A DNA stretch of 64,000 nt from Limonium bicolor (lineage: Eukaryota > Streptophyta > Magnoliopsida > Caryophyllales > Plumbaginaceae), in the NCBI GenBank assembly GCA_023374045.1, contig CM041778.1:403432438-403496437 (forward strand), given 5' to 3'. A program made the position numbers and the translations under genes. This document shows positions 11,996-33,496 of this stretch, in pieces (position 1 is the stretch's first letter; each line of letters opens with the position of its first letter). The notes below the pieces were generated by a model. The model was not told where the DNA came from. It saw only the letters and a program-made list of their open reading frames with translations, and did not search any database.

Positions 11996-13218
11996 ATGCT
12001 TCTCCGATCAAATAGTCTTCCTCAAGATTTATCCAACCTCGATCCAGAGATAAAGAGGACCTTTCTTCGTTGCTTAAGACAACAAAAAAGCCAACAAAAC
12101 GCTCCCCCTACACATATAGAATCAAATACAAAAGGTGAAATGGCAACCCCAATCGTCCGCAATATCAACCGGTCTTCCAATCAAGGCCAGAAACCGGCAT
12201 CAACCTCCCTCTCCTCTCACAGAATGAGTATGATTAGTGGCAAAAACTTAAGCCATATCATCAGATCCGTTGTGTGAAAGAGTTGGGCATGTTCGATGGT
12301 TCAAACCCGAACCATGCTTTGCTCCACATAACTAAATTTCTGCAGCACACCAATAGCCTGACTGCCGCAGACGCCGTCCTACAATATGCTAAACTCTCTC
12401 TCTCTTCCCCCATAGCCTCACAGCCATAGCAAGCAAATGGTACCATAGCCTGACCGCAGGTACCATCTCCACTTGGGACGACATGGCAATCAAATTTTAT
12501 GATAAATTCCTACCACCAAGTCACACCCTGGAGATGATCGCCGAAATATACAATTTCAAACAGCCTGGATCAGAGAATATCTGTGAGACTTGGGACAGAT
12601 TCAAGGGGTTGCTCCGCACATGTCCTCACCACGGCCTCACAAAGGAACAACTTTCCCAGTTGTTCTACAAGGGATTGGTAAACCAATGCAAAACTATGAT
12701 ACTATCCCCCTTGCTGCTGATATCCTAAAGATGCCAGAGAGCAATTTCTTAACGGGATTGAATCCCTATGCGAAGAAATCAGAGATTGGGCCACCTGTGG
12801 ATCAAGGGGCGGTACTCCAGGCTTATACCATTTGGGTGAGAGCGACAACAAATTCGATACATTAATAAAGATTCATAAGTAGTTGTTGGAAAAGCAATGC
12901 TCAAACATCGACGAAGGTTAGTGCCCTGCAGAAGGTTGTGGAGCAAATGGCAATGAATTCTCTTCCACAGCAGGGGAATGTGGTTAGTGCACGACTACAC
13001 TCCCAGTGCCCTAAATTGCAAGATTTGAAGAATGCTGAGGAAGAAAACTATGTGAGCAACAAGCCTGGGTTTAGGTAGCCTTGGCAGCCTGGGGGCCAAC
13101 CCCCTCAGAATTTTCAAAACCATGCAGACTACCCGGGAGGTCAAAGGTAATTCATGTAAACTCCTTATGGCAGAGTCCCTTCAAATCGATCTTCCCAACC
13201 TCCATCTAACTCTGAAGC
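11996..13218 (+). pseudogene. Athila-like gag, N-terminal and central part (interrupted by the chromovirus)
   Basis: The first open piece (11996-12277) holds LDPEIKRTFLRCLR, the usual Athila gag start. The central retrotransposon-gag domain is readable at 12483-12728: FYDKFLPPSHT, ETWDRFKGLLRTCPHHGL, LFYKGL. Several frameshifts and stops occur between pieces (for example before 12483 and after 12728). Reading ends at TCTGAAGC, where the chromovirus LTR starts; the gag tail resumes at 33263. This is a Ty3/gypsy capsid gene, now dead. Confidence 0.8.
13214..13218. repeat. Target site duplication GAAGC (left copy)
   Basis: GAAGC immediately precedes the chromovirus LTR start TGTAACACC; the same five bases follow the right LTR at 33258-33262. 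In the restored site both are one GAAGC within the Athila-like gag. Confidence 0.95.
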
Positions 13219-16200
13219 TGTAACACCCCTACTATGTACTTAACAATTTACCTAAATCGCAGCGGAAATAAACAACTAAACAATAACTAACGGTTCGGTG
13301 CTACAACGCCGTTAACCACCCACGTGGTTAACAAGGTAGAATAAATACAAGTGTACCGGTCTGATGATCAGACTCCTGAGCATAGAACTAAACCATAAAT
13401 ACATAATATACAATACCGAGTATTTATTTACAACCATCACTGTAAACTGTCACTGTAATGTATTCATTATCCAAAATATACCGCCACGGGAGCACAGGCG
13501 CATCCCGGGCCTACCAACCAAAAGGTACCAAAAGTATTTCTACAACCTAGGATCTACAGCCACTCCGCTTCTTCGATCCTCATCCTGCAAATATAAATAT
13601 GGAGCCCCCGAGGGGGTCAGCAACCCTTGGCTGGTATGGTTAACGCGCAGCCCATCGGCTACCGGGATACGCGCAACTAATTGTCATGATGACATGGCAT
13701 TCATTTTAAACATACAACATATATATCACAGCAAGAGTATTGCATAACAACATCACACATAACATACAAGAACGAATCCTTCTAGGAAACGAACCAACAC
13801 AATTAGATCACATGGAGAGCCTAGAGAATGTTGCCAAACTCATGCTAAGCTCGTTACATAACTCGTTACCGTCCTGTTAAATTGAACGAATAACTTAACA
13901 CAAAGGTGCGTCGGATATAGTGATCCAAGCACACCGAACAAACATAGTATGCCCCTGTGGCCCGACGTGAGTCAGTAAAATAGCCTTGGTTAAGCTAAAG
14001 GAAGGTTGAAGACCAAAAGAGAAGACAACCTTAACATACAAAGAAAATCGAACCGGTTATGACATCGACTCCCATACTCACACGCGTGGCCGGAACTACC
14101 GGACTCCTCACTTCCCCAGTTAGCACTTGTTAGAAGTCTCATTGCTGGACTTAATCAACAATTTCACAAGCAAGTGTTTAGGTCATGTTAGACACACACA
14201 AGGGAAATGAGTCACACCTCAACAACACAATGATATTAACAACTGTAAACTCATTACATGACTTAAGTCTTACAAGGTCATAAACACACAGAAAAACATA
14301 CAACACACAAGCCGGTGTAAACCGGTAGACAACAGACTGCAAGAAAACCATACCTTGGTCCTTGCTACGAACGTGACCCGCCAAGCGTAGTCCCTAAACA
14401 TAATTAATAATGTCGGTTAATTAACTTATTTAACTTTCGTTTACCAAGCATTTACATGATTGTATGACATGTTCTAATGCCTAAACTCACCCTTGATTAC
14501 CTTCATTATACCCCCTAGGGTTAACTACTTAAGCCACTTTTGTTTGTTTTTTTTCTCAAGTTTTGGTCCGACCGACCTTACCGACCGACCTTGCACAAGG
14601 TCGGTCCATTCCAGAACATATTACCGTTAGAAAATTCTACTCCGACTGACCTTGCAAGTTCAGTCCACAGGGTCGGTCCATTCCCGAAACAATTACCGTA
14701 TATGAAAGTTTAGACACGACCGACCTTACAAGTCCGGTCCCAAGGTCGGTCTATTCCAGAGACTTAATCCGTACCAAAAATACAAGCCCGACCGACCTTG
14801 CAAGTCCGGTCCCCCAGGTCGGTCCATTCCAGAGACCATTTCTCGCAGGGTAAACTGGGCTCGACCGACCTTGCAGGTCCGGTCCCCAAGGTCGGTCTGC
14901 TCCAGACCCTTGTTTTTAATTGCCCATTTAACTCCAAACTTCACCTTATGTATCCTAGTATGTTCTAACCTCATATGGGCACTTCAAACCCACCTTAATA
15001 CCTCCATTAAACTCCTTAAATGATTCACTAAAATCCTCCTCAAGCATTACACAAATTCTTATAAAAGGTTAGCACATGCAATGTTTTTCACTGAGTTTTT
15101 ATGTGGTGTTTTATACCTATAACTACCACTATTCTCAAATGCTTTCCCACCACTACAACATCATCTCCCAAGCATCTTTTCTTCCTAACCAAACTCTTTG
15201 AATATCTCCACAAGTTTATAGCTCCTTCCTGCAATACATTACTTCTTCCTTGTTCACCAACATTGTACAAGTCCTAAACACAATCTCACCATGATCTTGA
15301 AGTATACCAAAACACTCACTTGCATTCTAAATCCTCTAAAATATTGCTTAAGTCCTTTTTACATCTTAGAATACCTTAATGCATGTTTCTTTCACTAGTA
15401 GAACACTTAATCATTCTAAACACTTCCTAACTCACCAAAACTCATTTTAAACACCTAAAACTTCTTATACATTATCTAAATTTTGACATGGGTTCTTCTA
15501 GCACATTGCTACACCAAAACACATAGCTTTCACCATTAAACATTCAAGAACACCTATATCCATCAAGAGTATTTTCACACACAAAACTTCACCCAAACTA
15601 CACTACATCGTAATATAGTGCTTTATTTAAATTGCTTGGCACTTAGGCCCTTAAATAACATGGCTCTTAGGCCCTTAAATAACATGGCTCTTAGGCCCTT
15701 AAATAACATAAACCTTAAACACTGAATTTCCCACAATATATTTGCCTTTGACCTGCAAATACATACAACAACACATAGTCCTTTAATAATCTCCTTGAGG
15801 GCACTTTTCTAAGTCATTTACCATTAGCTCTTTAGGTAGTTTTAATAAGCAATATAAGCTCATTCTTCCTAAGGTATTATAAGCTACATTAGGTTAGTAC
15901 ATTTACCTCTTTTCCTTCACAACTTTTTCACTTATTTCTCCTTGCTCCTTCTTTGATTAAAATCGGCAAGGACTTTGGTTTGCTTGTCAAGTTTCTAATC
16001 AATATACAAGCAAGAGAATGAGCATTCATGCTTAAGCTCATTTGTAAACCCTAATTTACACATTGTCTTAAAACCTTAAGATAGTTGTTTTACCTTGGTA
16101 TTGGAAGAGAGTTTGAATATGTAGCAAGAGAGGACTCCACCTAGTCCTTGAAAGATTGGAATGAAGCTAGAACAAAGCAAGAGAAAACACCATCAATGGT

Positions 16201-17196
16201 GATTTTCGGTCAACATCAAAACATGGAGGAAATGTTGTTTTTCTTGGTTTTTTCTTACCTTGAAGCAAAGGTGATCATCAAGGCATAAAAATATAAGCTC
16301 AAGCTCCTTCAATGGTGGATCTCCATGGCACCAAAATGGTGGTCTTGAAGATTTGAGAAGACAAGGTTGAAGAGCTTGATGAGACTAGAAGAATGGTGGT
16401 CTTAGTTTTTGATTTGGTAAATGGAGCTAGGAATTACAAGATTTTAAAGATGGAGAATGGTGCTTGGGCTGTAGCAAAACCGTGTATGGAGGAAGAAGAG
16501 AGGTTGGAGGCGTGGGAAATGAAGAAGGAAAGAAGAGAATGAAGATAAGTTAGCTAGTTTAGATATTTAAGTAGTAAAGCAAATAGTACCTTTTACTTTA
16601 TTACTTTACTTAGCTCTTTTTTTTGTTTAAGTGTGGTGAGTCACACAAGAAAACCGGCCCCCATATTATAATAAGGGGTATTTTAGTCTTTGTTGACCAA
16701 TTAACTCACTTATGTTGACTTATGTTATAAACTTGCTTAATTTGGTCACTATTCACAAAACAATGCACATATTTGTGAAATTTTTGATTTCTCATTGATT
16801 TAAACTTCCTAATGTGATACTAAGTAGTACACATGTTAATTAAAGAGTAATGATGGACATTTATCCATTCAAAACTCATTTACAAGACAATTTTTCAAAA
16901 ATGTGCTTTAAGACTCCTTAAAGCACATTTTGTGTTTTAACTTGTTTTCAAGCTTGGTTTTCTTTGGTAATTGATTTAATACGTTCATTAACATATAAAT
17001 AAGGTCTTGGTAAGCTCATTAGGTCTTAACCAAGCTTATCCCAAGCTTAGAGCACATTTTCGCCCATATCGACTTTAAGGTATTTATTTGTGTTTACTGT
17101 GGTTTAAATTGTTCACTAATGTTTCTAAGGAACTTTTTAGCCTTATTATACCATATTTTAATGTCTAAACCACATACTAAGGTTTGGGGTATTTCA
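13219..17196 (-). repeat. Chromovirus LTR, left copy (3' LTR of the element)
   Basis: This 3978-bp LTR begins TGTAACACCCC and ends GGGGTATTTCA on the plus strand. It matches 29291-33257 base for base except for scattered substitutions and small indels; for example a 24-bp unit (GGCCCTTAAATAACATGGCTCTTA) is present three times here (about 15650-15705) but twice in the right copy. No conserved gene lies inside. A 127-codon antisense frame at 13364 is shared by both LTRs but has no recognisable family. Confidence 0.95.
14566..14910. repeat. Five-unit hairpin-forming repeat in the left LTR
   Basis: About five tandem units of roughly 72 bp each contain GACCGACCTTGCAAG followed after a few bases by AAGGTCGGTC, so each unit can fold into a hairpin with a GACCGACCTT/AAGGTCGGTC stem. 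Units are separated by TTCCAGA plus variable A/T-rich sequence. The same array is in the right LTR. Confidence 0.85.
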
Positions 17197-17210
17197 ATCT
17201 ACCCCCCTTA
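17197..17210 (-). other. Polypurine tract of the chromovirus
   Basis: On the minus strand TAAGGGGGGTAGAT abuts the 3' LTR start TGAAATACC. Position and purine run are as expected for the plus-strand primer of reverse transcription. Confidence 0.85.
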
Positions 17211-17687: not shown

Positions 17688-20600
17688 TGTAACACCCCTC
17701 TCAATAATCACGGCATAATCTCTCACGTAGCAATAAATAAAACGTCTCGCAGCGGAAAAATAAATAACAATTACAAAACTCACTCGGGTGTCACCGGCCG
17801 TTACTCGCCCATGTGAGCAACGCAGCCAAACTACAACCAACTTCCAATACAAATAAACTGCTAACCGCAGTGATAACGAGAAACTCCTATACATCATACT
17901 AAGTCCATAAACCATAAACATCGACAAGTGAGCGTCTACCCAATCCTGAAAAATACATAACCTTACCATAAGACCATACACCATCTTCATTACAATACAA
18001 CATCTCCAATTACCCTGTTCCTGCTCTTCAGCTCCGACAATGATCAACAACCTGAAATGGTGTAGTATCAGCGATAGTCGCTGAGTATGCCGGGCCTGGA
18101 CCCTAATGGTCACTTGTCATTTTAACCATCTTATTATTAGATTGGTTTTATGCCTTTCCATTTTACAGTTATAAACAATACTGTAATAAACATGTAATAT
18201 ATACATAATCAACCATCCAAATATTCATAAACATTTAACCATCCATCCAATCCAAACATTCATTTGATATCACAAACCACACTTATATATCGAACGTGTC
18301 AAGCAATAACAATATAATGTACATTGTACATCCGCCGTAGCGTACAATTTTCATATTTAATTTACCTTAGCCTTGTAGGATCCATCCAACCATCAACACA
18401 CAACAAAATAACCACAAGTATAACCAATGAACAACAAAGCGAAACAACGAGAATAATAAACAAGTATTAAGTCGCGTCCATGGTATTGTTCGCCACTGTA
18501 TAAGTCTCAATTGTTTTAGTTGTTCAGTTATACCTAGTGACAATGTCTCGTTAAAACGACATGTCTCTAGTTACCCATATATTATGGCGGGTCACCCATG
18601 GCAGTAGCCACTCCAACGGTAGAGTCTCCGACCAACGAGCCATTCTAGCTCACGGGAAATTTTCTTGATACTTACGGACCCGTACGCGGACATCCTGGTA
18701 TCGTTTTTGTGATCACAGCGCGCACCAAGAGCCACATCCTCTTGGCTTTACTTCCATTCCATTAATTAATTAATTATACCATCGCATCGCATTACCAAAT
18801 TTTCTAACACAGCAGACTAAGGTCATTAGTCCAATCCGGAGTCTGTAAACTCGGGATCCAGTGTTAGATACAAGAGCGGCGTATAGAAAGGCCAATGCTC
18901 CGTATAAAAGTCTCAGATAATATGTATATGTTATTATCATAGTGCTACAACGTTTTACTTACGTTCCTTATATTTCATATAAGATAGCACCATAGCCGCT
19001 AGTTCGTTTTATATATATAGGTTCATATATACGAACCAATACTGTTAACTCAACAACAGTAAATAATAAGCAGCTATAAATATACAGTTCATGCATATTA
19101 ATTATCACATTCAGACAATCAATCTTATCACAGATCACACAGAAGTCTGAACTGAGGAAGTCCTCGGAGACAATCAGAGACTCATAACAACATACAAGTT
19201 ATATCAACCAAATCCGAGCCCAAGGAGCAACCTTAGGTCAACTCGGCAAACCCCTTTACATACCGTTCACCCTGATTGTATTACGGTGGAGTATGAATCA
19301 GCAAGATCCTACGCTCCGTGTAGTCCGTTAGCTCGTCAAGCGTCCTTGTCAGAAGTATACTCTAAACGGTAATAAAAACTATAAGTCAGTCTCCATGACT
19401 AACTACATCCGGTATTTCCGAATTATAAGTAACCCCGACAGTTCACCCCTGTTTTTTACAGTTTTGTTACGGGTTTCTCTAAAACAGTCGGCTTTGTTAC
19501 TTAAAACGCGTACGTCAAAACTATTTCAACTGTTAAGTTTAATTCCTTATATTCCTCTTAATCTTATCCACATCTAGTTTAGGTACGTAACCTGTAGTTG
19601 CATGTATGCATGCGTTCTTATATTATATTGCATTCTAAAATTCATAACTTATAGTTCGTAATTATATTTATTTTTTTTTAAATAACCACCACCATTAAAT
19701 CATATGGTTTTCAACCAAAATATATATATCCACATTATATACATTATTCTCGTGTATGTATATATATTTTTACCACGTAGGTAATTCTCATGAGTTTCAT
19801 AGACTCTTATATTTTATGTTACACTTTATCATCTTTTATTAGATGATTATTCCCATTAGTTGTATTATATTATACAACTTATATTAAGATTATTATCCTA
19901 ACATGTAACATTTTATGTTGTATAATTACAACTCCTAAGGTTTATTCCATAAACACCTTAGCTTATAAATCCCATTTATTTATAGTTTGTCACATTATTT
20001 TATGTGAGTACCCTTCCTTATACTAATTCCATTAAACCACCTTAATACCATATATTGTCATAACATTTATGACATTGTAGACCATAGTCTAAAATTCATT
20101 TTCCAACTCTTATTAATTCGTATAGCCCCTGAATTTATTTAAATTCCCTTTTTGACCACATGACATTATGTAATGTTATACCAAAATGCTAATATCATTT
20201 GGTATGATATTTTTATTTCCTTTAACCCATAACCTATAGTTTTATACAAAACTATTGTACATTGCCTCATAGGCATATATTAAACCTTATACTTTTCCTT
20301 AAACCATAATTTCCTTTATTTACCAAATCACCCCTTTCTTTTTACCATGTTATATATACCATTCAATACAACATTTCTAACTTATAAAAGAGTATAACCT
20401 ATGGTTATTTTTTGTAAATTTCGAACAGCCCTTGTGATATTCTATAATTGCCATTTGGCCCTATTTATAACATATAGTTTACCATATCATTAAAACTATA
20501 TTTTATGCACATAACTTATTAAATTCTCTTAATAATTCTAAAAATCTCCAAATTCCACCAAAGGGTTATAAATATCCTTATTAACCCATATACTTTCAAT

Positions 20601-23334
20601 ATTTACCATTCCACCATCTATTTTTCTCCAAAGTGTCATAATGACATTATAACTATATATTATACATATATAGTTTATTTTAATTTCAAAATCCACCAAT
20701 TAAATTCCTAAAAATTCCTAATAGCCCATGGGTGTTTAAAATACCATTTTACACCCTTAATTTTCGGTAATAACATATTCACCACATATGTTATAAAATA
20801 TTACCATTAAATACATAACCTATTATAAAACCTTAAATAAGTTATCTAACTTATTTATTTTGGTCAAAACCTAGCATATGGTCAATGTTGACCACCTTAA
20901 TATTCCCTTGACCACCAATTCCTTATAATTACGGTTTAGTACCCAAACTTTCTAAAATTCACCATTTAACCCCAAAACTTTATAAAATCTTATAAACTTT
21001 ATTTTAACTCCTTTTTTTAACTCTAATTTTCGGCTTTATTTTTCTAAAGCCCCTAAATTTAATTTAATTACACCTAATACCCCATTTATTTTCAGTAATG
21101 CATTTATACTACTTAAACTTAATTAAAAGCTTGTAAATGCATAAATAAAATGGCCTAAAATACATGGCCTTATTACAAACATTTGCTCACAAAACAAATT
21201 ACACATAAATGTCCCAAAATATACCCTTAATTCTCGGCCTCACCACACACTTTCCATTTAATTACCAAACTTCCACATAATGTCTTAAATTTGACAATTA
21301 TGCTTGTTTAATTAGTTATAAAATTTATTAAACCATTCCTTAAACATTTTAAGGTCAATCAAGACCTTATTTTACCCTTCACTCACGGCAATTTAATTAG
21401 GAGTAGTTTAAGAACACATTAACTTAGCAAAGTTAATGTTTAAGTGATTTATACCTTGATTTAGCTTAGGTAATCCTTGTTTGGTTCGGCCACCTTAAGT
21501 AGAAATTCTCCACAGCTTGTTTTACATGTTTTCAAACAGAAAACAAGGCCTAGTTAGTCTCCAAGCAAGATCTAACCATAAGAAGTAATTTAATGTAAGA
21601 TTTAAGGCAAAAATTACCTTAAGAGTGCAAGGAGAGTTCAAGATGGTTTCGACCTGAATCAAACACACCACAAGGTGTTAGATCTACCATATTGACATAG
21701 GAAATAGCTAGATCTCAACAAGCTACCTTGTCATTAGGTTTTACCTTGGAAAAATGCCTTAAAAGAGGGTATTTTCTTTGGATCTCGGCCACCTTTGCTC
21801 CAAATGGCTAACCAACAGATTCCACATGAAAAGGAGAAGAAGATGAGGCTATGACCAAAGTTTCACAGCCGAACTTGAAGGGAATCAAAAGTTATGAGCT
21901 TAAAGCACATTTTTACCTTAAATGGTCAAGACTTGAACTTTCCTCCTTAGATCTGGTTATGAACGAGATTGAACCTTCCTTTAACCTCCAAAACACTCTA
22001 CATAGATGTATAGAAAAGGTTGGAGTGTAGATCAATCGAAAAAGGAAAGAAAGATGAAGAAAATGGGCATTTTTATGCCTTAAGAGCTTACCTAGAGCTT
22101 GAAATCTCATCAATGGTGCTTGGGAACCTTACCTACGGTGGAGGGGAGCCAAAGAGAGCTCAAAGAGTGAGCCATCTCGGCTGAAGAGAGGAAATGAAGG
22201 AGGAAGACCTATTATTGCCTTAAAGCACTTTTTTTGAATATTTTAGGTCATTATTGGTTTGATGACTCATCAATGCTGATTGGAGTTGGATAATTGAAGC
22301 TCAATCAGTGGAGACAAGAGGAGGGGGCAGCCGTTGAAGATAAGAGAAAGGTAGGGCTTGATTGATTCAAATTTTGATTGAAAATTGAGTAAATATGTTA
22401 CTTTAATTCATTTAATGTAAGGTGAGTCACTCTCCTTGTCTTGTTCCTACATGGAGCCACGAAATGCAAGGGAAAAGAGGAGCAATTGGAAGCTCCAAAT
22501 CAGCTGGCTCACATGGGAAAGGTAAGTGGAGCCCACCTTTTTTGTTTTATAAGGTAAAGTATGTCTTTTTTTGTTATTTTATGCTAAAGTAAAGGACTAT
22601 ATTTAATTGTCACATGGGACTTGTCTCTTGGTCTGTTAAGAGACTTATTTATCTGATTTTATGTAGTCCATTTCGTGGTCAATGGTCAACATTGGCCAAC
22701 TTAGTCAATGTTGACCCAAATGGGCCCCACATTAGGGTTTTATTAATATTTTAATATTAATTTTGTAAAAATTTGTAAATTTCTGGAATTAAATTCCTAA
22801 TATCATATAATATGATATTTTATTATATTTAAAGGTATTTATAACCTTTTAGCTCATTTAAAACCAATTTAAAAGACAATTTCACAAAAACGTGCTTTAA
22901 GGAGTTTTAGCGCACATTTTGTGTTGCCTGGTGTTTCTGAGCTTGGTTCTCTTTGACAACGGTCTTGTTGTGTACCTTACATGATATTTGGTCATGTAAC
23001 TCAATTTTATATCATTTAAAGGTCATTAGACCTTTAAGGTTTCTTAGAGTACATCTTTGCCCTTTTTGACCTTGAAGCATGAAAGTGCTTGTTCTTTGTG
23101 TTGGAGTGTTTTCCAACGGTTATAATATGTTTAATATTATGTTAATAAACTTAGGACAAATTTTTAGGTCCTAAGAAGTTCATTTGGGTATTTATTTACC
23201 CTTCACAGTCAAAGGGTGCAACATCTTGTTTTGTGTTGACCACTGTTGTTCTCAGTTGACTTTTAAGGTATGTTTAGGCCTTAATTAATGTGATTAAATA
23301 TTTAATCCATGTTTTATTAATTTGGGGTATTTCA
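17688..23334 (-). mobile_element. Solo LTR (5.6 kb) of a related chromovirus family, inserted in pol
   Basis: It starts TGTAACACCCCTC and ends GGGGTATTTCA, flanked by CGCAT on both sides. Its first about 150 bp (CGCAGCGGAAA, CGGCCGTTA) and last about 300 bp (CAAAAACGTGCTTTAAGG ... GCACATTTTGTGTT) resemble the ends of the 4-kb LTRs of the host element, while the middle is diverged and very A/T-rich (19600-21400). No PBS, PPT, internal LTR boundary or retroviral ORF is present, so I read it as one LTR left after LTR-LTR recombination. A non-autonomous element with no detectable LTR pair is the alternative. The orientation is the same as the host element. Confidence 0.8.
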
Positions 23335-24764
23335 CGCATGGTCGGCTCTAAGGTTAGCCTTTCAGGCTGAAGTACATGAGACGGATGAGACATATATTTC
23401 TTCAACTGGGACACATGAAATACATCGTGTACCTTGCCCAGCTCAGCAGGTAAATCTAGCCTGTAAGCTACCGGGCCTATCCGCTCCATCACAACATAAG
23501 GCCCCACATATTTCGGGCTCAACTTGCCTTTCTGGCCATAACGAAACACTCCCTTCATGGGGGATACTCTAAGAAATACCTGATCGCCCACGGTGAACTC
23601 CAGGTCACGTCTACGCACATCGGCGTATGATTTCTGCCTATCCTGAGCTGCCTTCATGTTAGCCCGAATCTGGCGTACTTCTGACTGTACTTGCTCCAGA
23701 TACTCTGGTCCTATAATGACCGTCTCACTCGACTCATCCCAGCATAATGGCGTGCGGCATGGTCTACCGTACAAAGCCTGGAAGGGAGACATCTTGATCG
23801 AAGCATGGTAACTGTTGTTGTAGCTGAACTCGATCAGATGTAACTTGTCAATCCAGCTGGTCTGAAAGTCAAGTGCACATGCACGTAACATATCCTCGAG
23901 TGTCTTGATGGTGCGCTCACTCTGACCATCGGTCTGCGGGTGGAACACCGTACTTAGCTTCAGCTCGGTACCAAGCTCTTCCCGTGTGGATTTCCAGTAC
24001 CTCGAGAGGAATCTGGTATCCCTGTCAGACACAATCATTTTCGGTACCCCATGATGTCTTACAATCTCTCTGTCGAATAGTTCTGCAAGCTTTACCACTT
24101 TCCAGGTGTCCTTCATCGGTATGAATCTAGCCACCTTGGTCAGTCGGTCAACAACAACCCAAATCATATTCAGACCTCCCCTTGTAGGCGGAAGCCCTAC
24201 TACGAAGTCCATAGAAATGTCATGGAACTTCCACTCAGGCACTGGCATTGGCTGTACCATACCACCAGGCCGTCGGTGCTCAAACTTGACCTTTTGACAA
24301 GTGAGACACCTCAACACATAATCGTTCACATCCTTTTTCATGTCTGTCCACCAAAAATATCTTTTCATACCCTTATACATTTTTGAAGCTCCGGGGTGAA
24401 TCGAAGTCGTAGAACAGTGAGATTCACTCAGTATGCGCTCTTTCAGCTCAGTGCTACTCCTCGGAATACACAGTCGGCCATTAAGCCTAATCAGGTCATC
24501 ATCGTGGAGTCGGAAGTCGTACTTCTGACCCTCAAATGTGCCATCAATAAGCTTCTGCCTGATCTCCAACATATACTGATCCGACATCTAAGCACTCCGC
24601 ACGTCTTCAACCAAGCTAGAATAAGAGACTAGTGAATGGAGAGAGTGTGCTTGGCGACTCAGTGTGTCAGCTACCACATTTGCTTTACCCTCCTTGCACT
24701 GTAAATTGATGTCGTAGTCGTTTAAGAACTCGACCCACCTTCTTTGTCTCATGTTCAACTCCTT
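23335..24764 (-). pseudogene. Chromovirus integrase
   Basis: The longest open part is 24587-23335. It holds the zinc-binding HHCC motif (His57, His64, Cys94, Cys97 of that frame), the catalytic DDE triad (Asp127 in SMDFVVGLP, Asp188 in SDRDTRF, Glu224 in GQSER; the last two are 35 residues apart) and the GPY-type module (KLSPKYVGPYVV) followed by HDVFHVSQLKKY. It is in frame with the RNase H segment but separated by TAG codons at 24765-24767 and 24588-24590, with the RNase H tail (NVVADTLSRQ) between them. The reading frame is cut by the solo LTR at 23334 and resumes at 17687. Confidence 0.92.
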
Positions 24765-26606
24765 CTAAGTGAACAAGTATTTTAAACTCTTGTGGTCAGA
24801 ATAGATTGTCACGCTTACCCCATACAAATGATGTCGCCATATCTTCAATGCGAAGACTATGGCACCCAATTCTAAATCGTGGGTAGGGTAGTTCTCTTCG
24901 TGTTTCTTCAATTGTCGGGAGGCGTAAGCCACGACCTTCCCGTGCTGCATCAATACACATCCCATACCTCTGCCTGATGCGTCACAATAGACTTCAAAAC
25001 CATCTGAACCGTCTGGTAAAGTCATGACTGGTGCAGATGTCAGAGCATCCTTGAGACTCTGGAAAGAACTCTCACAGTCGACTGTCCACTTGAATGGTGC
25101 ATCCTTCTTCATTAAGGAAGTCATCGGCTTCGAGACACTGGAGAAGTCCTTCACAAACCTCCTGTAATATCTTGCCAGACCGAGGAAGCTCCGTATGTCG
25201 GTAACTGTCTTCGGCCTAGGCCAGGTGCGCATTGCATCTATCTTTGCCGGATCAACAGCGATCCCGGCTTCAGAAATCACATGACCAAGAAAAGATACTT
25301 GGTTCAACCAAAACTCACACTTTGAACATTTAGCATACAGCTGATTCTTTCTCAACGTTTGCAACACACTTCTCAGGTGGCTTTCATGCTCACCTTTCGA
25401 TTTCGAGTACACAAGGATATCATCGATGAAGACTACCACAGACTTGTCCAACTGATCTTGGAACAAGCGGTTCATTAAGTCCATGAACTTGGCTGGTGCA
25501 TTGGATAAACCAAACGGCATAACCGTAAACTCGTAATGTCCATATCTGGTTCTGAATGCGGTCTTCTCAATGTCACTCTCACGGATGGCAATCTGATGGT
25601 ATCCGGATCGTAGATCTATCTTGGAGAATACTGATGCTCCTGTCAACTGATCAAATAAGTCGTCTATGCGTGGTAAAGGATAACGGTTCTTCACCGTAAC
25701 TGCATTCAACTCTCGATAATCAATACAAAGGCGGAGACTACCGTCCTTCTTCTTCACGAAGAGGACCGGCGCTCCCCATGGTGAAACACTAGGGCGGATA
25801 AATCCCTTGTCGAGTAGGTCTCTCAGCTGCTCCTTGAGCTCTGTCATCTCTGCTGGAGCCATACGATAGGGCGCCTTCGCTATTGGTCCGGTGCCCGGAA
25901 CCAAATCAATCTCAAACTCTACTTCCCGTGCTGGCGGCATGCCTGACAGTTCCTTAGGAAATACATCAGGAAACTCCGATACTACCGGCACATCTGGGCT
26001 AAACTCTGGGTCTCTCTCTATGTCCTGGACATAGCAGAGGTATATATCATTCCCTCGTCGTAGTTCACGGTACATGGCCATGGCGGTGATAATCTGAGTC
26101 GAAGGCTCCCTGGGCCTCTGGCGGTAAGATATAGTAACCCCAGACGGACTCCGAAGAAGCAGACGATGCTTGGCACACAGGATTCTGCCCTTGTACCGCT
26201 CCAACCAGTTCATCCCGATAATCACATCAAAACCAAGTCCCTCGAACTCTATCATGTCGATCGGAAACTCTTCCTCTCTAATTCGTACAACAACATCTCG
26301 GTGGTAGCGGGTACACCTGATCCGCTCTTTCGACGGGAGAGTGACTAGAAAGTCTGGCATCTCTTCACCGTCTAACCCCAGCCTCTTCGCAAAAGATAGC
26401 GAGATAAATGTATGTGAGGCTCCGGAGTCGAACAAGATCGAAGCGTCCACGCCATTGACTGGAAAGGTACCGGTGAGGATTGTGCCGCTCTTGCCGGCTT
26501 CTGCCTCATTACAAACATCCAGTATACCTCCCGTTCCGAGTGCACAGCCTAATTCATTGGCAAACTTCATAAGTATACGGTAACAACACGGTTGATATAC
26601 TTCCAA
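24765..26606 (-). CDS. Chromovirus pol: protease, reverse transcriptase, RNase H
   Basis: One open frame of 613 residues. Aspartic protease: [10 protein letters not shown] with Asp60-Ser-Gly, then the flap and ILG-equivalent [10 protein letters not shown] at about 127-134. Reverse transcriptase: about 245-445, with Asp331 in [12 protein letters not shown] and the catalytic FIDD (393-396). RNase H: about 537-613, with Asp542 (YCDAS), Glu579 and Asp604 (YSDHKSL). The frame ends at a TAG (24765-24767) where relatives continue directly to integrase, so this is a truncation by one nonsense change. The true N-terminus is uncertain: the first Met is simply the first after the AlkB stop, 128 bp away. 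All listed catalytic residues are present. Confidence 0.95.
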
Positions 26607-26734: not shown

Positions 26735-27511
26735 TTAAAACTGCCTGAAAGTCAAATTCAAACGTCCCGGTTTCATATGTGTGGCATTGATCACTGCCGA
26801 AGGTGCGATATTCAGTTTGATCTTCTTGATACCGTGGTAAAGCATCCTTGACTGCCCACCCATGACTAACACATCACCTGATTTCAACACTAACTTCTTT
26901 GCGAGATCACCACGCTTCTGCTCGCCGTACACAAACACTGCGGTATCACCAATGGACCAAGACACCACAGGTACTCCCTTACTTAGAGACTCGGGTGACT
27001 CATCCTTATCTTGGTGTAACCCTAACCGTCCACCTTTCTGGTAGAAGTTCACAATACATAAATCTGTTTTAACACTTGGTATTGAATCTGATTCAACTTG
27101 TTGAGCAATTCCCACGGCGTGGTTAACGACCGCAAGGAACTCCTCAGGTATCCTCGGTACAGTTGCTCCGTCTTCCGCTCGCTCATCTTGATATGTCTTG
27201 GTGTAAGGATTCTAGTCCTTACCCATGCACATCATCTTCAATTTCATCCTCGATCCGCTTGGGTATTCGGGTGTGTAGAACCCTCCAGGTGCTGCTCCTA
27301 GTTCATTACATCGTCTGATGATGTGGATTTGTGCTTCGGGTGTCAGGTGTCCATTTAAGAGTACCATACCTGGTTGGATAACCTGACACTGCTCCATTGG
27401 GAACTCGGTGATGCTGATGGTTGTCACTTCAGGGTTTGGTGTGGGCGGGATTGGATAACAGATATTAAAGGTTCCTAGATTTTTCAGATTACCTAATTTA
27501 GGTGTTTCCAC
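26735..27511 (-). CDS. AlkB-type Fe(II)/2-oxoglutarate dioxygenase ORF inside the retrotransposon (one internal stop)
   Basis: A 258-codon frame between gag and pol. An upstream segment resembling the plant ALKBH1-like N-terminus (TFNICYPIPP, then VIQPGMVLLNGHLTPEAQ and GAAPGGFYTPEY) leads into the nucleotide-lid region LKMMCMGKD. A TAG at codon 100 (27212-27214) replaces what is probably a Trp, and the same frame continues for 158 codons. The core is intact: CIVNFYQKGGRLGLHQDKDE gives the metal ligands His166 and Asp168, LYHGI gives the distal His226, and GRLNLTFRQF gives the two Arg (250, 256) of the AlkB R-x5-R signature that bind 2-oxoglutarate. It is closest by eye to plant ALKBH1-type demethylases, which act on N1-methyladenine in tRNA or N6-methyladenine in DNA. 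No intron interrupts it, as expected of a gene captured through RNA. The frame ends in a TAA (26735-26737), 128 bp before the pol frame. The identification is sure; activity is not. Confidence 0.93.
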
Positions 27512-27961
27512 ACTATACTTTAACTCTTTACTTACATGGTTGTATACTTAGACTCACTAACACACATGCATGAAATGCGGTATGCAATTACTCATTTCAT
27601 TTAACGGTTTAGGCGGTACCTGGTCTAGAAGAGGGTCCTGGCGCCTCAGACAGGTCCACCACATGCAGGGCGGCCTTGCCGGATCTTGACCCCTTCCCCT
27701 TCTGGGGATCAATGTACCTCTGGTCGGTGGGTGGCTGGTTAGCCGTCTTCGGGCCATCGGTAGTCACGGCGGCCTTGCCCTTCCACTGCCCCTTAGGTCT
27801 GTAGTTTCTGCCATTCGGGTTCTGGAAGCACTCGTAGTCACGATGCCCCATCTTCTTACAGAATCGGCACTGCACATCATCTCCCTTGCAGTCCTTACTG
27901 GGGTGGTCTCCCTTGCACCACTTGCAGTAGTAGTGGCGATCGGATCCAAAGCCCGTGCTAG

Positions 27962-28044
27962 CTACTAACACATCACACATTCAGTACATACTTCACATTA
28001 TAACATCACACACTTAAACTTGATATTCAGAACTAATTAGTTAC
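27962..28044 (-). other. Intron-like 83-bp gap in gag
   Basis: On the coding strand: TTCAAGG|GTAACT ... GTGTTAGTAG|CTAGCACG. Removing it joins the Lys/Arg-rich tail of the gag middle (PLRSQPFK) to the zinc-knuckle frame in phase 1. The gap itself is T-rich with stops in all frames. Confidence 0.5.
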
Positions 28045-28303
28045 CCTTGAAGGGTTGAGAGCGCAGGGGCTTAGCCGCATATGCATAGGTGAGCTGCAAC
28101 GGCTCCTCAGCAGTGGTGGTCTGGGCCTGGCCCTTGCCACCCTGTTGCTGTCCTTTTTGGGACTGGGGGTATGGCTTTTTCTTCTTCCCTCCCCCGTACC
28201 CTTGCGTGCTTTGACCCTCGCTCGTGGCCTTGCGCTTGAGCGCATTCTCCTCGTCCCTCAGACGGACGGTGATCTCTACTATAGCAGTGGCATGATAGCA
28301 CTC

Positions 28304-28399: not shown

Positions 28400-29072
28400 C
28401 TACAAAGTAGTATATCTGCTCGGCCCCATACCATAGTGTAGGCGGTAGCTCAGTCCGTTGTAGAAACGGTTCACTAGAATCCGGTCTGAGTAACCCAGAT
28501 CCGGCAGCAGGTGGATAAGTCCGATGAAAGCGGAGTAGTACTCATCTACCGTCATCTTATCCCCTTGTCTCAGATTGTCCAACTCCAGGCGCTTGGCCTC
28601 TTGCACGTGTATCGGGTAGTACTTGGCTCGCAACAGAGCCGTGTACTCCCTCCACTGAAAGGTAGGGTCAGCAACTCTGCCCTACCGTACCAACTTCCAC
28701 CAACTCTGTGCCGAACCCTTCAGATAGTAAGCGGCAAGATGGACCTTGACCTCCTCGGGCACATTCAAGGTCTCGTAGGCGGTCTCTAACTCGGAGATAT
28801 ACGCCTCCAACTTACTAGGGTCGGTCTCCCCACTACGACGGGGGTCTCAAATCAGCCAACGCCTTGACCCAGTTGGTCTCTCGTGGCGGTGGCGGTGGTG
28901 GTTGAACATCGGGCTGTTGCCCCTGCTGAATCGCAGCTACTAACTGTGGGACCATCTGAGCTACGACGGCCGCAACAGCGTCGGCCATGACTTGCGCCGT
29001 AGGGTTCTCTCCCTGGTTCCCGGTATCACCAATGCCGCGCCCGCGGCCTCTACCACGTGATCTACCTGACAT

Positions 29073-29273: not shown

Positions 29274-29285
29274 GCTCTAATACCA
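29274..29285 (-). other. Primer-binding site of the chromovirus (initiator tRNA-Met type)
   Basis: On the minus strand TGGTATTAGAGC begins five bases inside the 5' LTR and matches 11 of 12 bases of TGGTATCAGAGC, the complement of the 3' end of plant initiator tRNA-Met. Confidence 0.88.
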
Positions 29286-29290
29286 CTTTT

Positions 29291-32200
29291 TGTAACACCC
29301 CTACTACGTACTTAACAATTTACCTAAATCGCAGCGGAAATAAACAACTAAACAATAACTAACGGTTCGGTGCTACAACGCCGTTAACCACCCACGTGGT
29401 TAACAAGACAGAATAAATACAAGTGTACCGGTCTGATGATCAGACTCCCGAGCATAGAACTAAACCATAAATACATAATATACAATACCGAGTATTTATT
29501 TACAACCATCACTGTAAACTGTCACTGTAATGTATTCATTATCCAAAATATACCGCCACGGGAGCACAGGCGCATCCCGGGCCTACCAACCAAAAGGTAC
29601 CAAAAGTATTTCTACAACCTAGGATCTACAGCCACTCCGCTTCTTCGATCCTCATCCTGCAAATATAAATATGGAGCCCCCGAGGGGGTCAGCAACCCTT
29701 GGCTGGTATGGTTAACGCGCAGCCCATCGGCTACCGGGATACGCGCAACTAATTGTCATGATGACATGGCATTCATTTTAAACATACAACATATATATCA
29801 CAGCAAGAGTATTGCATAACAACATCACACATAACATACAAGAACGAATCCTTCTAGGAAACGAACCAACACAATTAGATCACATGGAGAGCCTAGAGAA
29901 TGTTGTCAAACTCATGCTAAGCTCGTTACATAACTCGTTACCGTCCTGTTAAATTGAACGAATAACTTAACACAAAGGTGCGTCGGATATAGGGATCCAA
30001 GCACACTGAACAAACATAGTATGCCCCTGTGGCCCGACGTGAGTCGGTAAAATAGCCTTGGTTAAGCTAAAGGGAAGGTTGAAGACCAAAAGAGAAGACA
30101 ACCTTAACATACAAAGAGAATCGAACCGGTTATGACATCGACTCCCATACTCACACGCGTGGCCGGAACTACCGGACTCCTCACTTCCCCAATTAGCACT
30201 TGTTAGAAGTCCCATTGCTGGACTTAATCAACAATTTCACAAGCAAGTGTTTAGGTCATGTTAGACACACACAAAGGAAATGAGTCACACCTCAACAACA
30301 CAATGATATTAACAACTGTAAAATCATTACATGACTTAACTCTTACAAGGTCATAAACACACAAAAAAACATACAACACACAAGCCGGTGTAAACCGGTA
30401 GACAACAGACTGCAAGAAAACCATACCTTGGTCCTTGCTACGAACGTGACCCGCCAAGCGTAGACCCTAAACATAATTAATAATGTCGGTTAATTAACTT
30501 ATTTAACTTTCATTTACTAAGCATTTACATGATTGTATGACATGTTCTAATGCCTAAACTCACCCTTGATTACCTTCATTATACCCCCTAGGGTTAACTA
30601 CTTAAGCCACTTTTGTTTGTTTTTTTTTTCTCAAGTTTTGGTCCGACCGACCTTACCGACCGACCTTGCACAATGTCGGTCCATTCCAGAACATATTACC
30701 GTTAGAAAATTCTACTCCGACCGACCTTGCAAGTTCGGTCCACAGGGTCGGTCCATTCCCGAAACAATTACCGTATATGAAAGTTTAGACACTACCGACC
30801 TTACAAGTCCGGTCCCAAGGTCGGTCTATTCTAGAGACTTAATCTGTACCAAAAATACAAGCCCGACCGACCTTGAAAGTCCGGTCCCCAAGGTCGGTCC
30901 ATTCCAGAGACCATTTCTCGCAGGGTAAACTGGGCTCGACCGACCTTGCAGATCCGGTCCCCAAGGTCGGTCTGCTCCAGACCCTTGTTTTTAATTGCCC
31001 ATTTAACTCCAAACTTCACCTTATGTATCCTAGTATGTTTTAACCTCATATGGGCACTTCAAACCCACCTTAATACCTCCATTAAACTCCTTAAATCGTT
31101 CACTAAAATCCTCCTCAAGCATTACACAAATTCTTATAAAAAGGTTAGCACATGCAATGTTTTTCACTGAGTTTTTATGTGGTGTTTTATACCTATAACT
31201 ACCACTATTCTCAAATGCTTTCCCACCACTAAAACATCATCTCTCAAGCATCTTTTCTTCCTAACCAAACTCCTTGAATATCTCCACAAGTTTATAGCTC
31301 CTTCCTGCAATACATTACTTCTTCCTTGTTCACCAACATTGTACAAGTCCTAAACACAATCTCACCATGATCTTGAAGTATACCAAAACACTCACTTGCA
31401 TTCTAAATCCTCTAAAATATTGCTTAAGTCCTTTTTACATCTTAGAATACCTTAATGCATGTTTCTTTCACTAGTAGAACACTTAATCATTCTAAACACT
31501 TCCTAACTCACCAAAACTCATTTTAAACACCTAAAACTTCTTATACATTATCTAAATTTTGACATGGGTTCTTCTAGCACATTGCTACACCAAAACACAT
31601 AGCTTTCACCATTAAACATTCAAGAACACCTATATCCATCAAGAGTATTTTCACACACAAAACTTCACCCAAACTACACTACATCATAATATAGTGCATT
31701 ATTTAAATTGCTTGGCACTTAGGCCCTTAAATAACATGGCTCTTAGGCCCTTAAATAACATAAACCTTAAACACTGAATTTCCCACAATATATCTGCCTT
31801 TGACCTGCAAATACATACAACAACACATATGTCCTTTAATAATCTCCTTGAAGGCACTTTTCTAAGTCATTTACCATTAGCTCTTTAGGTAGTTTTAATA
31901 AGCAATATAAGCTCATTCTTCCTAAGGTATTATAAGCTACATTAGGTTAGTACATTTACCTCTTTTCCTTCACAAATTTTTCACTTATTTCTCCTTGCTC
32001 CTTCTTTGATTAAAATCGGCAAGGACTTTGGTTTGCTTGTCAAGTCTCTAATCAATATACAAGCAAGAGAATGAGCATTCAAGCTTCATGCTTAAGCTCA
32101 TTTGTAAACCCTAATTTACACATTGTCTTAAAACCTTAAGATAGTTGTTTTACCTTGATATTGGAAGAGAGTTTGAATATGTAGCAAGAGAGGACTCCAC

Positions 32201-33257
32201 CTAGTCCTTGAAAGATTGGAATGAAGCTAGAACAAAGCAAGAGAAAACACCATCAATGGTGATTTTCGGTCAACATCAAAACATGGAGGAAATATTGTTT
32301 TTCTTGGTTTTTCCTTACCTTGAAGCAAAGGTGATCAACAAGGCATAAAAATATAAGCTCAAGCTCCTTCAATGGTGGATCTCCATGGCACCGAAATGGT
32401 GGTCTTGAAGATTTGAGAAGACAAGGTTGAAGAGGTTGATGAGACTAGAAGAATGGTGGTCTTAGTTTTTGATTTGGTAAATGGTGCTAGGAATTACAAG
32501 AGTTTAAAGATGGAGAATGGTGCTTGGGCTGTATCAAAACCGTGTATGGAGGAAGAAGAGAGGTTAGAGGCATGGGAAATGAAGAAGGAAAGAAGAGAAT
32601 GAAGATAAGTTAGCTAGTTTAGATATTTAAGTAGTAAAGCAAATAGTACCTTTTACTTTATTACTTTACTTAGCTCTTTTTTTTTGTTTAAGTGTGGTGA
32701 GTCACACAAGAAAACCGGCCCCCATATTATAATAAGGGGTATTTTAGTCTTTGTTGACCAATTAACTCACTTATGTTGACTTATGTTATAAACTTGCTTA
32801 ATTTGGTCACTATTCACAAAACAAGGCACATATTTGTGAAATTTTTTATTTCTCATTGATTTAAACTTCCTAATGTGATACTAAGTAGTACACATGTTAA
32901 TTAAAGAGTAATGATGGACATTTAACCATTCAAAACTCATTTACAAGACAATTTTTCAAAAATGTGCTTTAAGACTCCTTAAAGCACATTTTGTGTTTTA
33001 ACTTGTTTTCAAGCTTGGTTTTCTTTGGTAATTGCTTTAATACGTGTATTAACATATAAATAAGGTCTTGGTAAGCTCATTAGGTCTTAACCAAGCTTAT
33101 CCCAAGCTTAGAGCACATTTTCACCCATATAGACTTTAAGGTATATATTTGTGTTTAATGTGGTTTAAATTGTTCACTAATGTTTCTAAGGCACTTTTTA
33201 GCCTTATTATACCATATTTTAATGTCTAAACCACATACTAAGGTTTGGGGTATTTCA
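29291..33257 (-). repeat. Chromovirus LTR, right copy (5' LTR of the element)
   Basis: 3967 bp with the same ends as 13219-17196 and near-identical throughout. It carries the promoter used by the element (transcription runs leftward). The right border GGGGTATTTCA is followed by the target duplication GAAGC at 33258-33262. Confidence 0.95.
30641..30984. repeat. Five-unit hairpin-forming repeat in the right LTR
   Basis: Counterpart of 14566-14910, with GACCGACCTT ... AAGGTCGGTC stems repeated about every 72 bp. A few stem bases differ from the left copy (for example CAATGTCGG for CAAGGTCGG). Confidence 0.85.
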
Positions 33258-33496
33258 GAAGCCGAGATGGCAGAGTTGCGAGACATGATGACGACACTGA
33301 TGAACAAATCTCACGACGCTCATGAAGAGATTTCAGCCCTTCGCAAGGACCACAAGACGTTGCATTCGCAATTGCAGCAACTTCTTGCTCGACCAAGACC
33401 AACCGGTCAGCTACCGTCCCAAACCCAAATTAATCCACGGGAGCATGTGAAGTCCGTCACCATTATCTCGGAGAGTTCCAAGCATTGCACCACATA
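33258..33496 (+). pseudogene. Athila-like gag, C-terminal part
   Basis: It continues the gag interrupted at 13218 (Ser-Glu-Ala) after the GAAGC duplication: EAEMAELRDMMTTLMNKSHD, a helical region, then TGQLPSQTQINPREHVKSVT, the typical Athila gag tail. It ends at a stop (33494-33496). Protease and RT do not follow, so this element is either gag-only or deleted. Confidence 0.78.

What the first reader, a model, noticed from the sequence alone, without database searches (positions are those of the whole stretch)
26735..27511. A retrotransposon carrying an ALKBH1-type AlkB dioxygenase between gag and pol
Seen: between the zinc-knuckle gag and the protease of an otherwise standard chromovirus lies a 258-codon frame with every AlkB ligand in place (His166, Asp168, His226, Arg250, Arg256), closest by eye to plant ALKBH1-like proteins. 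It is on the same strand as gag and pol, inside one LTR pair with one target duplication, so it belongs to the element and is not a host gene nearby. Known: AlkB domains occur in the replicases of some plant RNA viruses and in host nucleic-acid demethylases. I know of no well-described LTR retrotransposon family with one, though I cannot search. Inference: the element captured a host ALKBH1-like mRNA and may have used it to strip methyl groups from its RNA, its tRNA primer or its DNA.
Basis: partly seen in the sequence, partly recalled or inferred. Interest (0 to 1): 0.92.

Follow-up and report, generated by a model that had tools for sequence, protein, structure and literature searches.

The report
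Demethylase gene inside a plant retrotransposon
A family of jumping genes in a sea-lavender genome carries its own copy of an enzyme of the kind that strips methyl groups from DNA or RNA, and has kept it intact while multiplying, which suggests that it helps the element past its host's chemical marks.

Summary
On the minus strand at 27474-26735, inside a chromovirus with one LTR pair (13219-17196 / 29291-33257) and one GAAGC target duplication, lies an AlkB 2OG-Fe(II) dioxygenase with all five ligands. The window's own copy is dead: an in-frame stop in AlkB, broken gag and pol, and a nested insertion. Intact AlkB frames exist in siblings.

The host genome is Limonium (matK; 2.92 Gb). The AlkB active-site motif occurs 19,013 times (reversed control: 6). 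AlkB sits between gag and pol in 17 of 20 sibling copies and in 6 of 6 copies of two diverged subfamilies. Its dN/dS is 0.13-0.19, like pol (0.14-0.23). Variants shared between copies are mostly silent; singletons are near neutral. Silent sites between subfamilies are saturated: long maintenance. An unnamed contig, probably of another species, very likely carries gag plus AlkB.

The closest solved fold is rice ALKBH1 (TM 0.93). Conserved, mostly same-phase splice sites in three subfamilies suggest alternative Gag-AlkB and Gag-Pol mRNAs (inferred).

AlkB in plant Gypsy elements is already published (Phalaenopsis, ALKBH5-type, near Ogre). This is a separate ALKBH1-type case: a new variant. Substrate unknown.

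The parts
29291..33257 (-). 5' LTR (TGAAATACCCC...GGGGTGTTACA)
   Evidence: 97.5% to the 3' LTR over 3,991 columns; K2P 0.0156; ends read
13219..17196 (-). 3' LTR
33258..33262 (.). target-site duplication, outer side of the 5' LTR (GAAGC on +)
13214..13218 (.). target-site duplication, outer side of the 3' LTR (GAAGC on +)
29274..29285 (-). primer binding site; 14 of 20 sibling stretches hold TGGTATCAGAGC, of the tRNA-Met (initiator) type by recall
   Evidence: tRNA identity recalled, not tested
17202..17209 (-). polypurine tract (by position and letters)
28400..29072 (-). gag exon 1 (Retrotrans_gag / Ty3_capsid); frame broken in the window copy
   Evidence: sibling L018's exon matches PF03732 and PF19259; donor GT 28399/28398 in 17 of 17 aligned rows, window included
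28045..28303 (-). gag exon 2 (predicted)
   Evidence: acceptor AG 28305/28304 in 17 of 17, donor GT 28044/28043 in 17 of 18 aligned rows
27620..27964 (-). gag exon 3 with the zinc knuckle (predicted); ends at donor GT 27619/27618
   Evidence: acceptor AG 27966/27965 in 17 of 18 rows
26735..27474 (-). AlkB exon (ALKBH1-type 2OG-Fe(II) dioxygenase) with its own stop; one internal in-frame stop in this copy
24765..26548 (-). protease, reverse transcriptase, RNase H; acceptor AG 26550/26549; ends at an in-frame stop
23335..24587 (-). integrase (H2C2, rve, SH3_Tf2-1) up to the nested insertion
17688..23334 (-). nested insertion with LTR-type ends, TSD ATGCG, inside the chromodomain coding part; probably a solo LTR of a related family (inferred from its ends)

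Best explanation
This is one dead copy of a very abundant Ty3/Gypsy chromovirus lineage of a Limonium genome. The lineage has carried a plant-ALKBH1-type AlkB dioxygenase since before its present subfamilies split, and keeps it under selection. Proposed working: the primary transcript has introns. One donor at the end of gag (phase 1) can be joined to an acceptor in front of AlkB, giving Gag-AlkB that ends at AlkB's own stop. The same donor can be joined to an acceptor in front of protease, giving Gag-Pol. The Gag part would bring AlkB into the particle, where it oxidatively removes methyl groups on adenine or cytosine from the element's own nucleic acid. I put single-stranded substrate (cDNA or genomic RNA) first. 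Shown here: presence, position, motif copy number, ligands, predicted fold, purifying selection, conserved splice-site letters and mostly equal phases. Inferred: splicing, fusion to Gag, catalysis, substrate and benefit. I hold the core (element-borne, long kept, selected AlkB) at about 0.95, the alternative-splicing step at about 0.6, and action on the element's own nucleic acid at about 0.5.
For: Copies: 19,013 motif matches against 6. Order: gag directly upstream and pol directly downstream in 17 of 20 A copies (in L014 and L028 gag itself holds an insertion) and in 6 of 6 B/C copies. Selection, 21 A copies, window included: AlkB median dN/dS 0.13; its N half, not used to pick the copies, 0.19; RT 0.23; INT 0.14. 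In the AlkB N half shared variants have N/S 0.50 against 2.03 for singletons (RT 0.38 against 1.51; INT 0.32 against 1.08). Within B dN/dS 0.13; between A, B and C pS is 0.74-0.87 with pN 0.19-0.30. Open frames: 137 of 150 scored places of a further A-like set have no stop inside (my count); they too were picked by similarity. Ligands: all five in 17 of 21 A copies, and in pattern in 6 of 6 B/C. Fold: pLDDT 93.4; OsALKBH1 TM 0.93, E. coli AlkB about 0.80. Splicing: AlkB acceptor AG kept in 22 of the 24 stretches where the F[D/N]IC codons were found (of 27), although the bases before it vary. Pol acceptor AG in 21 of 21 A rows and 5 of 6 B/C (by eye); where the frame could be read it is phase 1 in 16 of 16 A, 4 of 4 B, 1 of 1 C. 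The FDIC part, homologous to host ALKBH1, lies before any in-frame ATG in the A, B and C frames read. Second source: AlkB P0001 (71%) and gag P0121 (63%) both sit on ENA contigs of 26,621 bases, and P0121 ends just past the intron-1 donor. P0001's best match among 150 places scored in this genome is 77%, so it is not a copy of the subfamilies seen here.
Against: No transcript, protein or activity was seen. The donor phase was readable in 18 of 27 stretches and was 1 in 14; I take the other four (L010, L012, L021, L033) to be frame-shifted copies. L018 (A) and L037 (B) lost the AG before AlkB, L022 keeps AG in an altered context, L013 has an altered donor, and L036 lost the pol acceptor. L037 reads from AlkB straight into protease and RT as one 644-codon frame, so splicing may not be the only layout. 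P0002, from another source, is called from an ATG upstream of FDIC, which fits a free enzyme. Four of 21 A copies lost an arginine ligand. The copies were picked by similarity of AlkB's last 126 residues, which lowers dN there. The shared contig length of P0001 and P0121 is strong but indirect proof of linkage, and its species is unknown.
Confidence: 0.55

Rival explanations
1. A passenger: a host cDNA was captured, is carried along without function, and decays neutrally.
For: The window's own copy has a stop in AlkB, and singletons are near neutral.
Against: dN/dS as low as in pol, shared variants mostly silent; frames of about 250 codons open in subfamilies with saturated silent sites; 19,013 motif matches.
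Confidence: 0.03
2. Assembly mis-join or a host gene that happens to lie in one copy.
For: None found.
Against: Same order in 17 of 20 A copies and 6 of 6 B/C copies on different large contigs.
Confidence: 0.01
3. The AlkB removes m6A (or m1A) from the element's RNA, as proposed for the orchid elements, so that the RNA escapes sequestration or decay.
For: Published parallel with in vitro m6A activity and the ONSEN/ALKBH9B case as told in PMC9289625 and in a passage of PMC12786077.
Against: This AlkB is not of the ALKBH5/9 type: the 50 listed structures are rice ALKBH1, E. coli AlkB, human or mouse ALKBH1 and ABH2-type entries.
Confidence: 0.3
4. It acts on the initiator tRNA-Met primer (for example m1A58), changing priming or the stop of plus-strand strong-stop DNA.
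For: The binding site reads TGGTATCAGAGC in 14 of 20 sibling stretches; human ALKBH1 is reported to act on several m1A-methylated tRNAs in mitochondria (PMC6499213 passage). Its action on cytosolic initiator tRNA is recalled, from no call.
Against: The orchid AlkB elements use a tRNA-Arg-type site (PMC9289625), so there is no general link; the tRNA identity here is recalled, not tested; mammalian ALKBH1 is a distant structural match (TM 0.55-0.70).
Confidence: 0.12
5. It works on chromatin rather than on the element's nucleic acid: like rice ALKBH1 it keeps PRC2 off its target and so keeps element copies transcribed.
For: Rice ALKBH1, the closest solved homologue, impairs PRC2 binding and affects 6mA in R-loops (PMC10469495 abstract).
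Against: The Fe and 2OG ligands are kept in 17 of 21 A copies and 6 of 6 B/C, which speaks for catalysis; the parts of rice ALKBH1 needed for PRC2 are unknown to me.
Confidence: 0.1
6. AlkB is not spliced to gag but translated from an internal ATG as a small free enzyme.
For: In-frame ATGs stand directly before the conserved core, P0001 and P0003 are called from there, and P0002 from an ATG upstream of FDIC.
Against: In A, B and C the frame and the FDIC motif are conserved upstream of the core ATGs, down to an AG in 22 of 24 stretches.
Confidence: 0.25

Closest known systems
Phalaenopsis Gypsy elements with a 2-ODD/AlkB ORF (Gypsy_Pa_2799; PMC9289625)
   Same: Plant Ty3/Gypsy LTR retrotransposons with a PF13532 domain kept through many rounds of replication with cofactor ligands intact.
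   Different: There: 25.5 kb, sister to Ogre within Tat, dual RNase H, tRNA-Arg site, gag-pol in one ORF and a separate 565-aa ORF2 with an ALKBH5-type domain of shown m6A activity, Orchidaceae. Here: about 14.4 kb, chromodomain, AlkB exon between gag and pol, ALKBH1-type, Plumbaginaceae; activity not tested.
Plant ALKBH1 / rice OsALKBH1 (PDB 5xoi, 5xeg)
   Same: Fold (TM 0.93), 48% identity, FDIC and PGM..L starts, ligands, C-terminal GRLNLTFRQ.
   Different: No long N-terminal region; lacks about nine residues that the plant rows have before the Asn-x-Tyr strand; KRxD in 7 of 7 element rows and 0 of 14 plant rows, with [KRH]RxD in 5 of 6 bacterial rows. Single exon, in a mobile element.
AlkB domains in plant RNA viruses (Alphaflexi-, Betaflexi-, Closteroviridae)
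   Same: Selfish replicators with an AlkB domain.
   Different: RNA viruses; compared only through PMC9289625's discussion, not by sequence. One scan of viral contigs with sibling L009's AlkB found no relative.
Plant Tekay/Del chromoviruses
   Same: Gag, PR, RT, RH, INT, SH3 and chromodomain order, tRNA-Met-type site, long LTRs.
   Different: AlkB exon and predicted introns in and after gag. The clade name and its usual single-ORF layout are recalled, not tested with an RT tree.

Membership tests
AlkB / plant ALKBH1-type 2OG-Fe(II) dioxygenases | PF13532 match above the curated cut-off | tested here: met
   122.9 bits against 31.2 for the window's downstream half; the 120 listed homologues bear PF13532
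AlkB / plant ALKBH1-type 2OG-Fe(II) dioxygenases | HxD...H and RxxxxxR ligands | tested here: met
   All five in the window copy, in 17 of 21 A copies (window included) and 6 of 6 B/C copies
AlkB / plant ALKBH1-type 2OG-Fe(II) dioxygenases | Jelly-roll fold close to OsALKBH1 | tested here: met
   pLDDT 93.4, TM 0.93 to 5xoi; the model is of sibling L009
AlkB / plant ALKBH1-type 2OG-Fe(II) dioxygenases | Nests inside the plant ALKBH1 clade | tested here: inconclusive
   Sister to 48 plant sequences (SH-aLRT 93 then 84); join with Caryophyllales not rejected, p-AU 0.136
AlkB / plant ALKBH1-type 2OG-Fe(II) dioxygenases | Demethylase activity | not testable with these tools
   No assay possible
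Ty3/Gypsy chromovirus | PR-RT-RH-INT order with LTR pair and TSD | tested here: met
Ty3/Gypsy chromovirus | C-terminal chromodomain | tested here: met
   Interrupted in the window; same sequence by eye in L029-L031; in L031 PF00385 E 7.5e-5, 23.0 bits, just under the cut-off of 25.1 (48-residue piece)
Ty3/Gypsy chromovirus | Tekay clade by RT tree | not tested
Phalaenopsis-type AlkB Gypsy (Ogre/Tat) | ALKBH5-type domain | tested here: not met
   Nearest are plant ALKBH1 by sequence and fold; no ALKBH5 entry among the 50 listed structures
Phalaenopsis-type AlkB Gypsy (Ogre/Tat) | Gag-pol as one ORF with AlkB in a second ORF | tested here: not met
   AlkB lies between gag and pol in 17 of 20 A and 6 of 6 B/C copies
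Phalaenopsis-type AlkB Gypsy (Ogre/Tat) | Tat lineage by RT, dual RNase H, tRNA-Arg site | not tested
   No RT tree; second RNase H not looked for; binding-site letters read but the tRNA was named by recall

The most novel reading that the evidence does not exclude
A chromovirus lineage makes a Gag-AlkB fusion by alternative splicing, packages the demethylase in its particle and erases adenine or cytosine methylation from its own single-stranded replication intermediates. This would be an element-encoded counter-defence that arose independently of the orchid case, is older than the split of the lineage's subfamilies, and is tied to a success of some 19,000 motif copies in one genome.
Probability: 0.3. 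Interest if true: 0.88.

Novelty: new variant of a known kind. Interest (0 to 1): 0.74.

Why it matters
A second capture by a retroelement of another layout, of a different AlkB type, in a distant plant order and at a very high copy number, turns the orchid case from a curiosity into a pattern: methyl marks on nucleic acid seem to matter enough to retroelements that they carry their own eraser. With thousands of copies and many open frames, biochemistry, expression and evolutionary tests are within reach. It also bears on whether 6mA or m6A restrains transposons in plants.

Tried and rejected
Rejected: a mis-join (siblings); neutral passenger; the short pair 22855/32927 as the LTRs, since the first lies in the nested insertion and the true pair is; translation start at 27511, because that stretch is poorly conserved; first-guess acceptors CTAAG|TATAC and GAAG|TATATC, replaced by the better conserved ones. 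A regular expression for the AlkB acceptor failed and was replaced. The donor index was off by one base, so its '1 of 18' is an artefact; the printed letters show GT in 17 of 18 rows, L013 being the exception.

P0109-P0120 looked element-like by length but resemble bacterial AlkB (which showed ten of the twelve). I first read a frame change in gag exon 1 as shared by copies; it was an artefact of leaving out inserted bases.

Counts to know: trees used 70 and 69 chosen rows, not all 120 listed of 2,330 hits. Pairs under 80% identity were dropped from dN/dS (210, 190 and 136 of 210 pairs kept). The 20 A copies came from the first 40 rows of the 150 listed by AlkB similarity. Three of 27 stretches (L015, L016, L024) had no F[D/N]IC codons and are outside the 22 of 24.

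Full report
What is there. On the minus strand the window holds one LTR retrotransposon, 13219-33257, with 4.0-kb LTRs at 29291-33257 and 13219-17196 (97.5% over 3,991 columns; K2P 0.0156) and the duplication GCTTC (GAAGC on +) on both outer sides. Reading along the element: a binding site of tRNA-Met type by recall (29285-29274), gag with capsid and a CCHC knuckle (the knuckle by eye), an AlkB exon, PR-RT-RH, INT, chromodomain, and a polypurine tract (17209-17202). At 17688-23334 a 5.6-kb insertion with LTR-type ends and its own duplication ATGCG cuts the chromodomain. Three siblings continue with a chromodomain where the window is cut; in L031 Pfam finds it at E 7.5e-5, slightly under the cut-off. 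Without the insertion the element would be about 14.4 kb, as sibling L018/L031 is.

The AlkB frame. Reader and sequence agree on every ligand. The window copy has one in-frame stop at codon 100, its gag frame is broken and its pol has in-frame stops. The copy is dead. Its LTR divergence gives 0.6-1.1 million years with recalled rates of 1.3e-8 and 7e-9; two sibling pairs with near full-length LTRs give 0.6-1.1 and 1.4-2.6, a third compared over 1.07 kb only 1.0-1.8.

Host. A matK piece in the same assembly is 95% identical to Limonium carolinianum, 87% to Popoviolimon, 79% to Plumbago over about 80% of the query. The assembly has 2,924,550,425 bases, and a review gives 2.92 Gb for Limonium bicolor (PMC12310839, passages only). 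I name the genus with confidence, the species as likely.

Other copies. A search with the window's last 126 AlkB residues scored 150 places at 92-99% identity. A plant ALKBH1 query scored 113 more host-like places at 53-60%, 92 of them without a stop inside (my count), open frames mostly about 250 codons. P0001 as query scored 150 places of a further A-like set at 73-77%, 137 without a stop, mostly 251 codons (my count). All these lists are capped and chosen by similarity. An exact DNA pattern for G-L-H-Q-D-x-D-E found 19,013 places against 6 for the reversed control. If each sat in a 10-14 kb element this would be 190-270 Mb, 6-9% of the genome; that is a rough inference, and some matches will be fragments. 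Rows at even spacing of about 10.5 kb on one strand (for example C1:1430339-1461716) suggest tandem LTR-internal arrays.

Order in other copies. I fetched 20 A copies (10 kb each). In 17 of 20, gag lies directly upstream and pol directly downstream of AlkB (in L014 and L028 gag holds an insertion further up); in L015, L016 and L024 the homology breaks in the 5' part of AlkB. Six copies of the host-like set (five of subfamily B, one of C; 72-76% identical to the window in RT-side DNA) all have gag-side sequence, AlkB and protease in the same order; L036 shows only gag tail sequence and no zinc knuckle in the stretch, and L035's knuckle is under the Pfam cut-off. Protein identity in AlkB is 59% A-B, 53% A-C, 67% B-C for one pair each.

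Selection. Among 21 A copies, window included, median dN/dS at dS above 0.08 is 0.13 for AlkB, 0.23 for PR-RT-RH and 0.14 for INT. The copies were picked by AlkB's C half, so the N half is the fair test: 0.19. Variants found in two or more copies (which passed through replication) have N/S 0.50 in that half, singletons 2.03; RT 0.38 and 1.51, INT 0.32 and 1.08. AlkB is thus held by selection while elements replicate, and decays once inserted, like pol. Between subfamilies silent sites are saturated (pS 0.74-0.87) but pN is 0.19-0.30: long maintenance. Against this: 4 of 21 A copies lost an arginine ligand, as expected for dead copies.

Second source. In a search of 5.8 billion proteins, four proteins of unnamed contigs (P0001-P0004, 58-71%) head the list, before plant ALKBH1 proteins at about 38-52% (best 120 of 2,330 shown). 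A search with gag exon 1 found only two proteins; the first, P0121 (63%), lies on an ENA contig of 26,621 bases, the same length as that of P0001. I take them to be one contig, which would mean gag plus AlkB there; the contig itself could not be opened. P0001's best match in this genome is 77% among 150 scored, so it is not one of the subfamilies seen here and probably comes from another species, perhaps a close relative. P0002 groups with subfamily C (82), P0001 and P0003 with A (96): A and C probably split before those hosts did.

Origin. The 18 element AlkBs sampled form one clade (SH-aLRT 93, or 84 without one long bacterial row), next to and not within 48 plant ALKBH1 proteins. Holding them with Caryophyllales hosts costs 15.8 log units but is not rejected (p 0.136). 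They lack about nine residues that the plant rows have before the Asn-x-Tyr strand and bear KRxD (7 of 7 element rows, 0 of 14 plant rows; [KRH]RxD in 5 of 6 bacterial rows), while sharing FDIC, PGM and the C-terminus with plants. Single capture is favoured; the donor is open.

Fold. The model of sibling L009 has pLDDT 93.4. Best solved matches: rice ALKBH1 5xoi (TM 0.93, 48%), E. coli AlkB (about 0.80), mammalian ALKBH1 (0.55-0.70); by sequence 5xeg at 4e-69. [quoted passage not shown] This is why I rank single-stranded substrates first and keep a chromatin role as a rival.

How it may be expressed. Gag is interrupted by two short GT-AG introns: site letters kept in 17 of 17, 17 of 17, 17 of 18 and 17 of 18 aligned rows, and the phases read off the codons match, 0/0 and 1/1 (my reading). 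The last gag exon ends at a GT (17 of 18 rows, letters; all 6 B/C by eye). The AlkB exon begins after AG in 22 of 24 stretches across A, B and C, five bases before the F[D/N]IC codons, although the bases before AG differ. Pol begins after AG in 21 of 21 A rows and 5 of 6 B/C (by eye), phase 1 in all 21 stretches of 27 where it could be read. Donor phase was 1 in 14 of 18 readable stretches. So one donor and two same-phase acceptors occur in three subfamilies. This predicts Gag-AlkB and Gag-Pol as alternative products. L037, where AlkB runs into pol in one frame, and P0002, called from an ATG before FDIC, do not fit it neatly. No RNA was seen.

Prior art. PMC9289625 (abstract, Results parts 1-2 of 3, Discussion read) screened 121 angiosperm genomes and found PF13532 in Gypsy elements only of two Phalaenopsis species: sister to Ogre, 25.5 kb, ALKBH5-type, active on m6A RNA in vitro. 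A 2025 review cites only that case in the one passage I saw (PMC12786077). My searches list no ALKBH1-type AlkB in an LTR retrotransposon and none in Limonium; listings were read, not all papers, and the library holds open-licence PMC papers only, so print elsewhere is possible.

Verdict. Real, element-borne and selected; a new variant of a known kind; substrate and expression remain to be shown.

Noticed in passing
window 34518-60215: A segment of about 13.5 kb is present twice in tandem (34518-35993/47846-49323 98.3%; 35977-45322/49740-59075 99.0%), with a third piece at 59004-60215; gag-like frames (PF03732) at 41409-42776 and 55746-56531. Looks like a young tandem or multi-LTR element.
   Followed up: partly
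window 45904-47420: Tandem array with unit 96/191 bases (about 8-16 copies) built on a 49-base motif, between the two copies above.
   Followed up: no
window about 60211-60725: A run of N (assembly gap or withheld stretch) next to an LTR relative at 60716-61574, 80% identical to the AlkB element's LTR.
   Followed up: no
window 30669-30988 and 14594-14906: The LTR holds GC-rich tandem units (CCGACC..GGTCGGTC) of about 73/146 bases.
   Followed up: no
L037:1414-3345: In one subfamily-B copy the AlkB frame continues without a stop into protease and RT as a single 644-codon frame.
   Followed up: partly
G000 C1:1430339-1461716 and C1:7387134-7418970: AlkB motif copies at even spacing of about 10.5 kb on one strand: apparent tandem arrays of internal region plus LTR.
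   Followed up: no
G000 C1 list and list: Further subfamilies: a codon variant reading Gly-Leu-His-Gln-Asp-Asn-Asp-Glu recurs (C1:400387, C1:4669482), and an A-like set with 251-codon frames matches P0001 at 73-77%.
   Followed up: no
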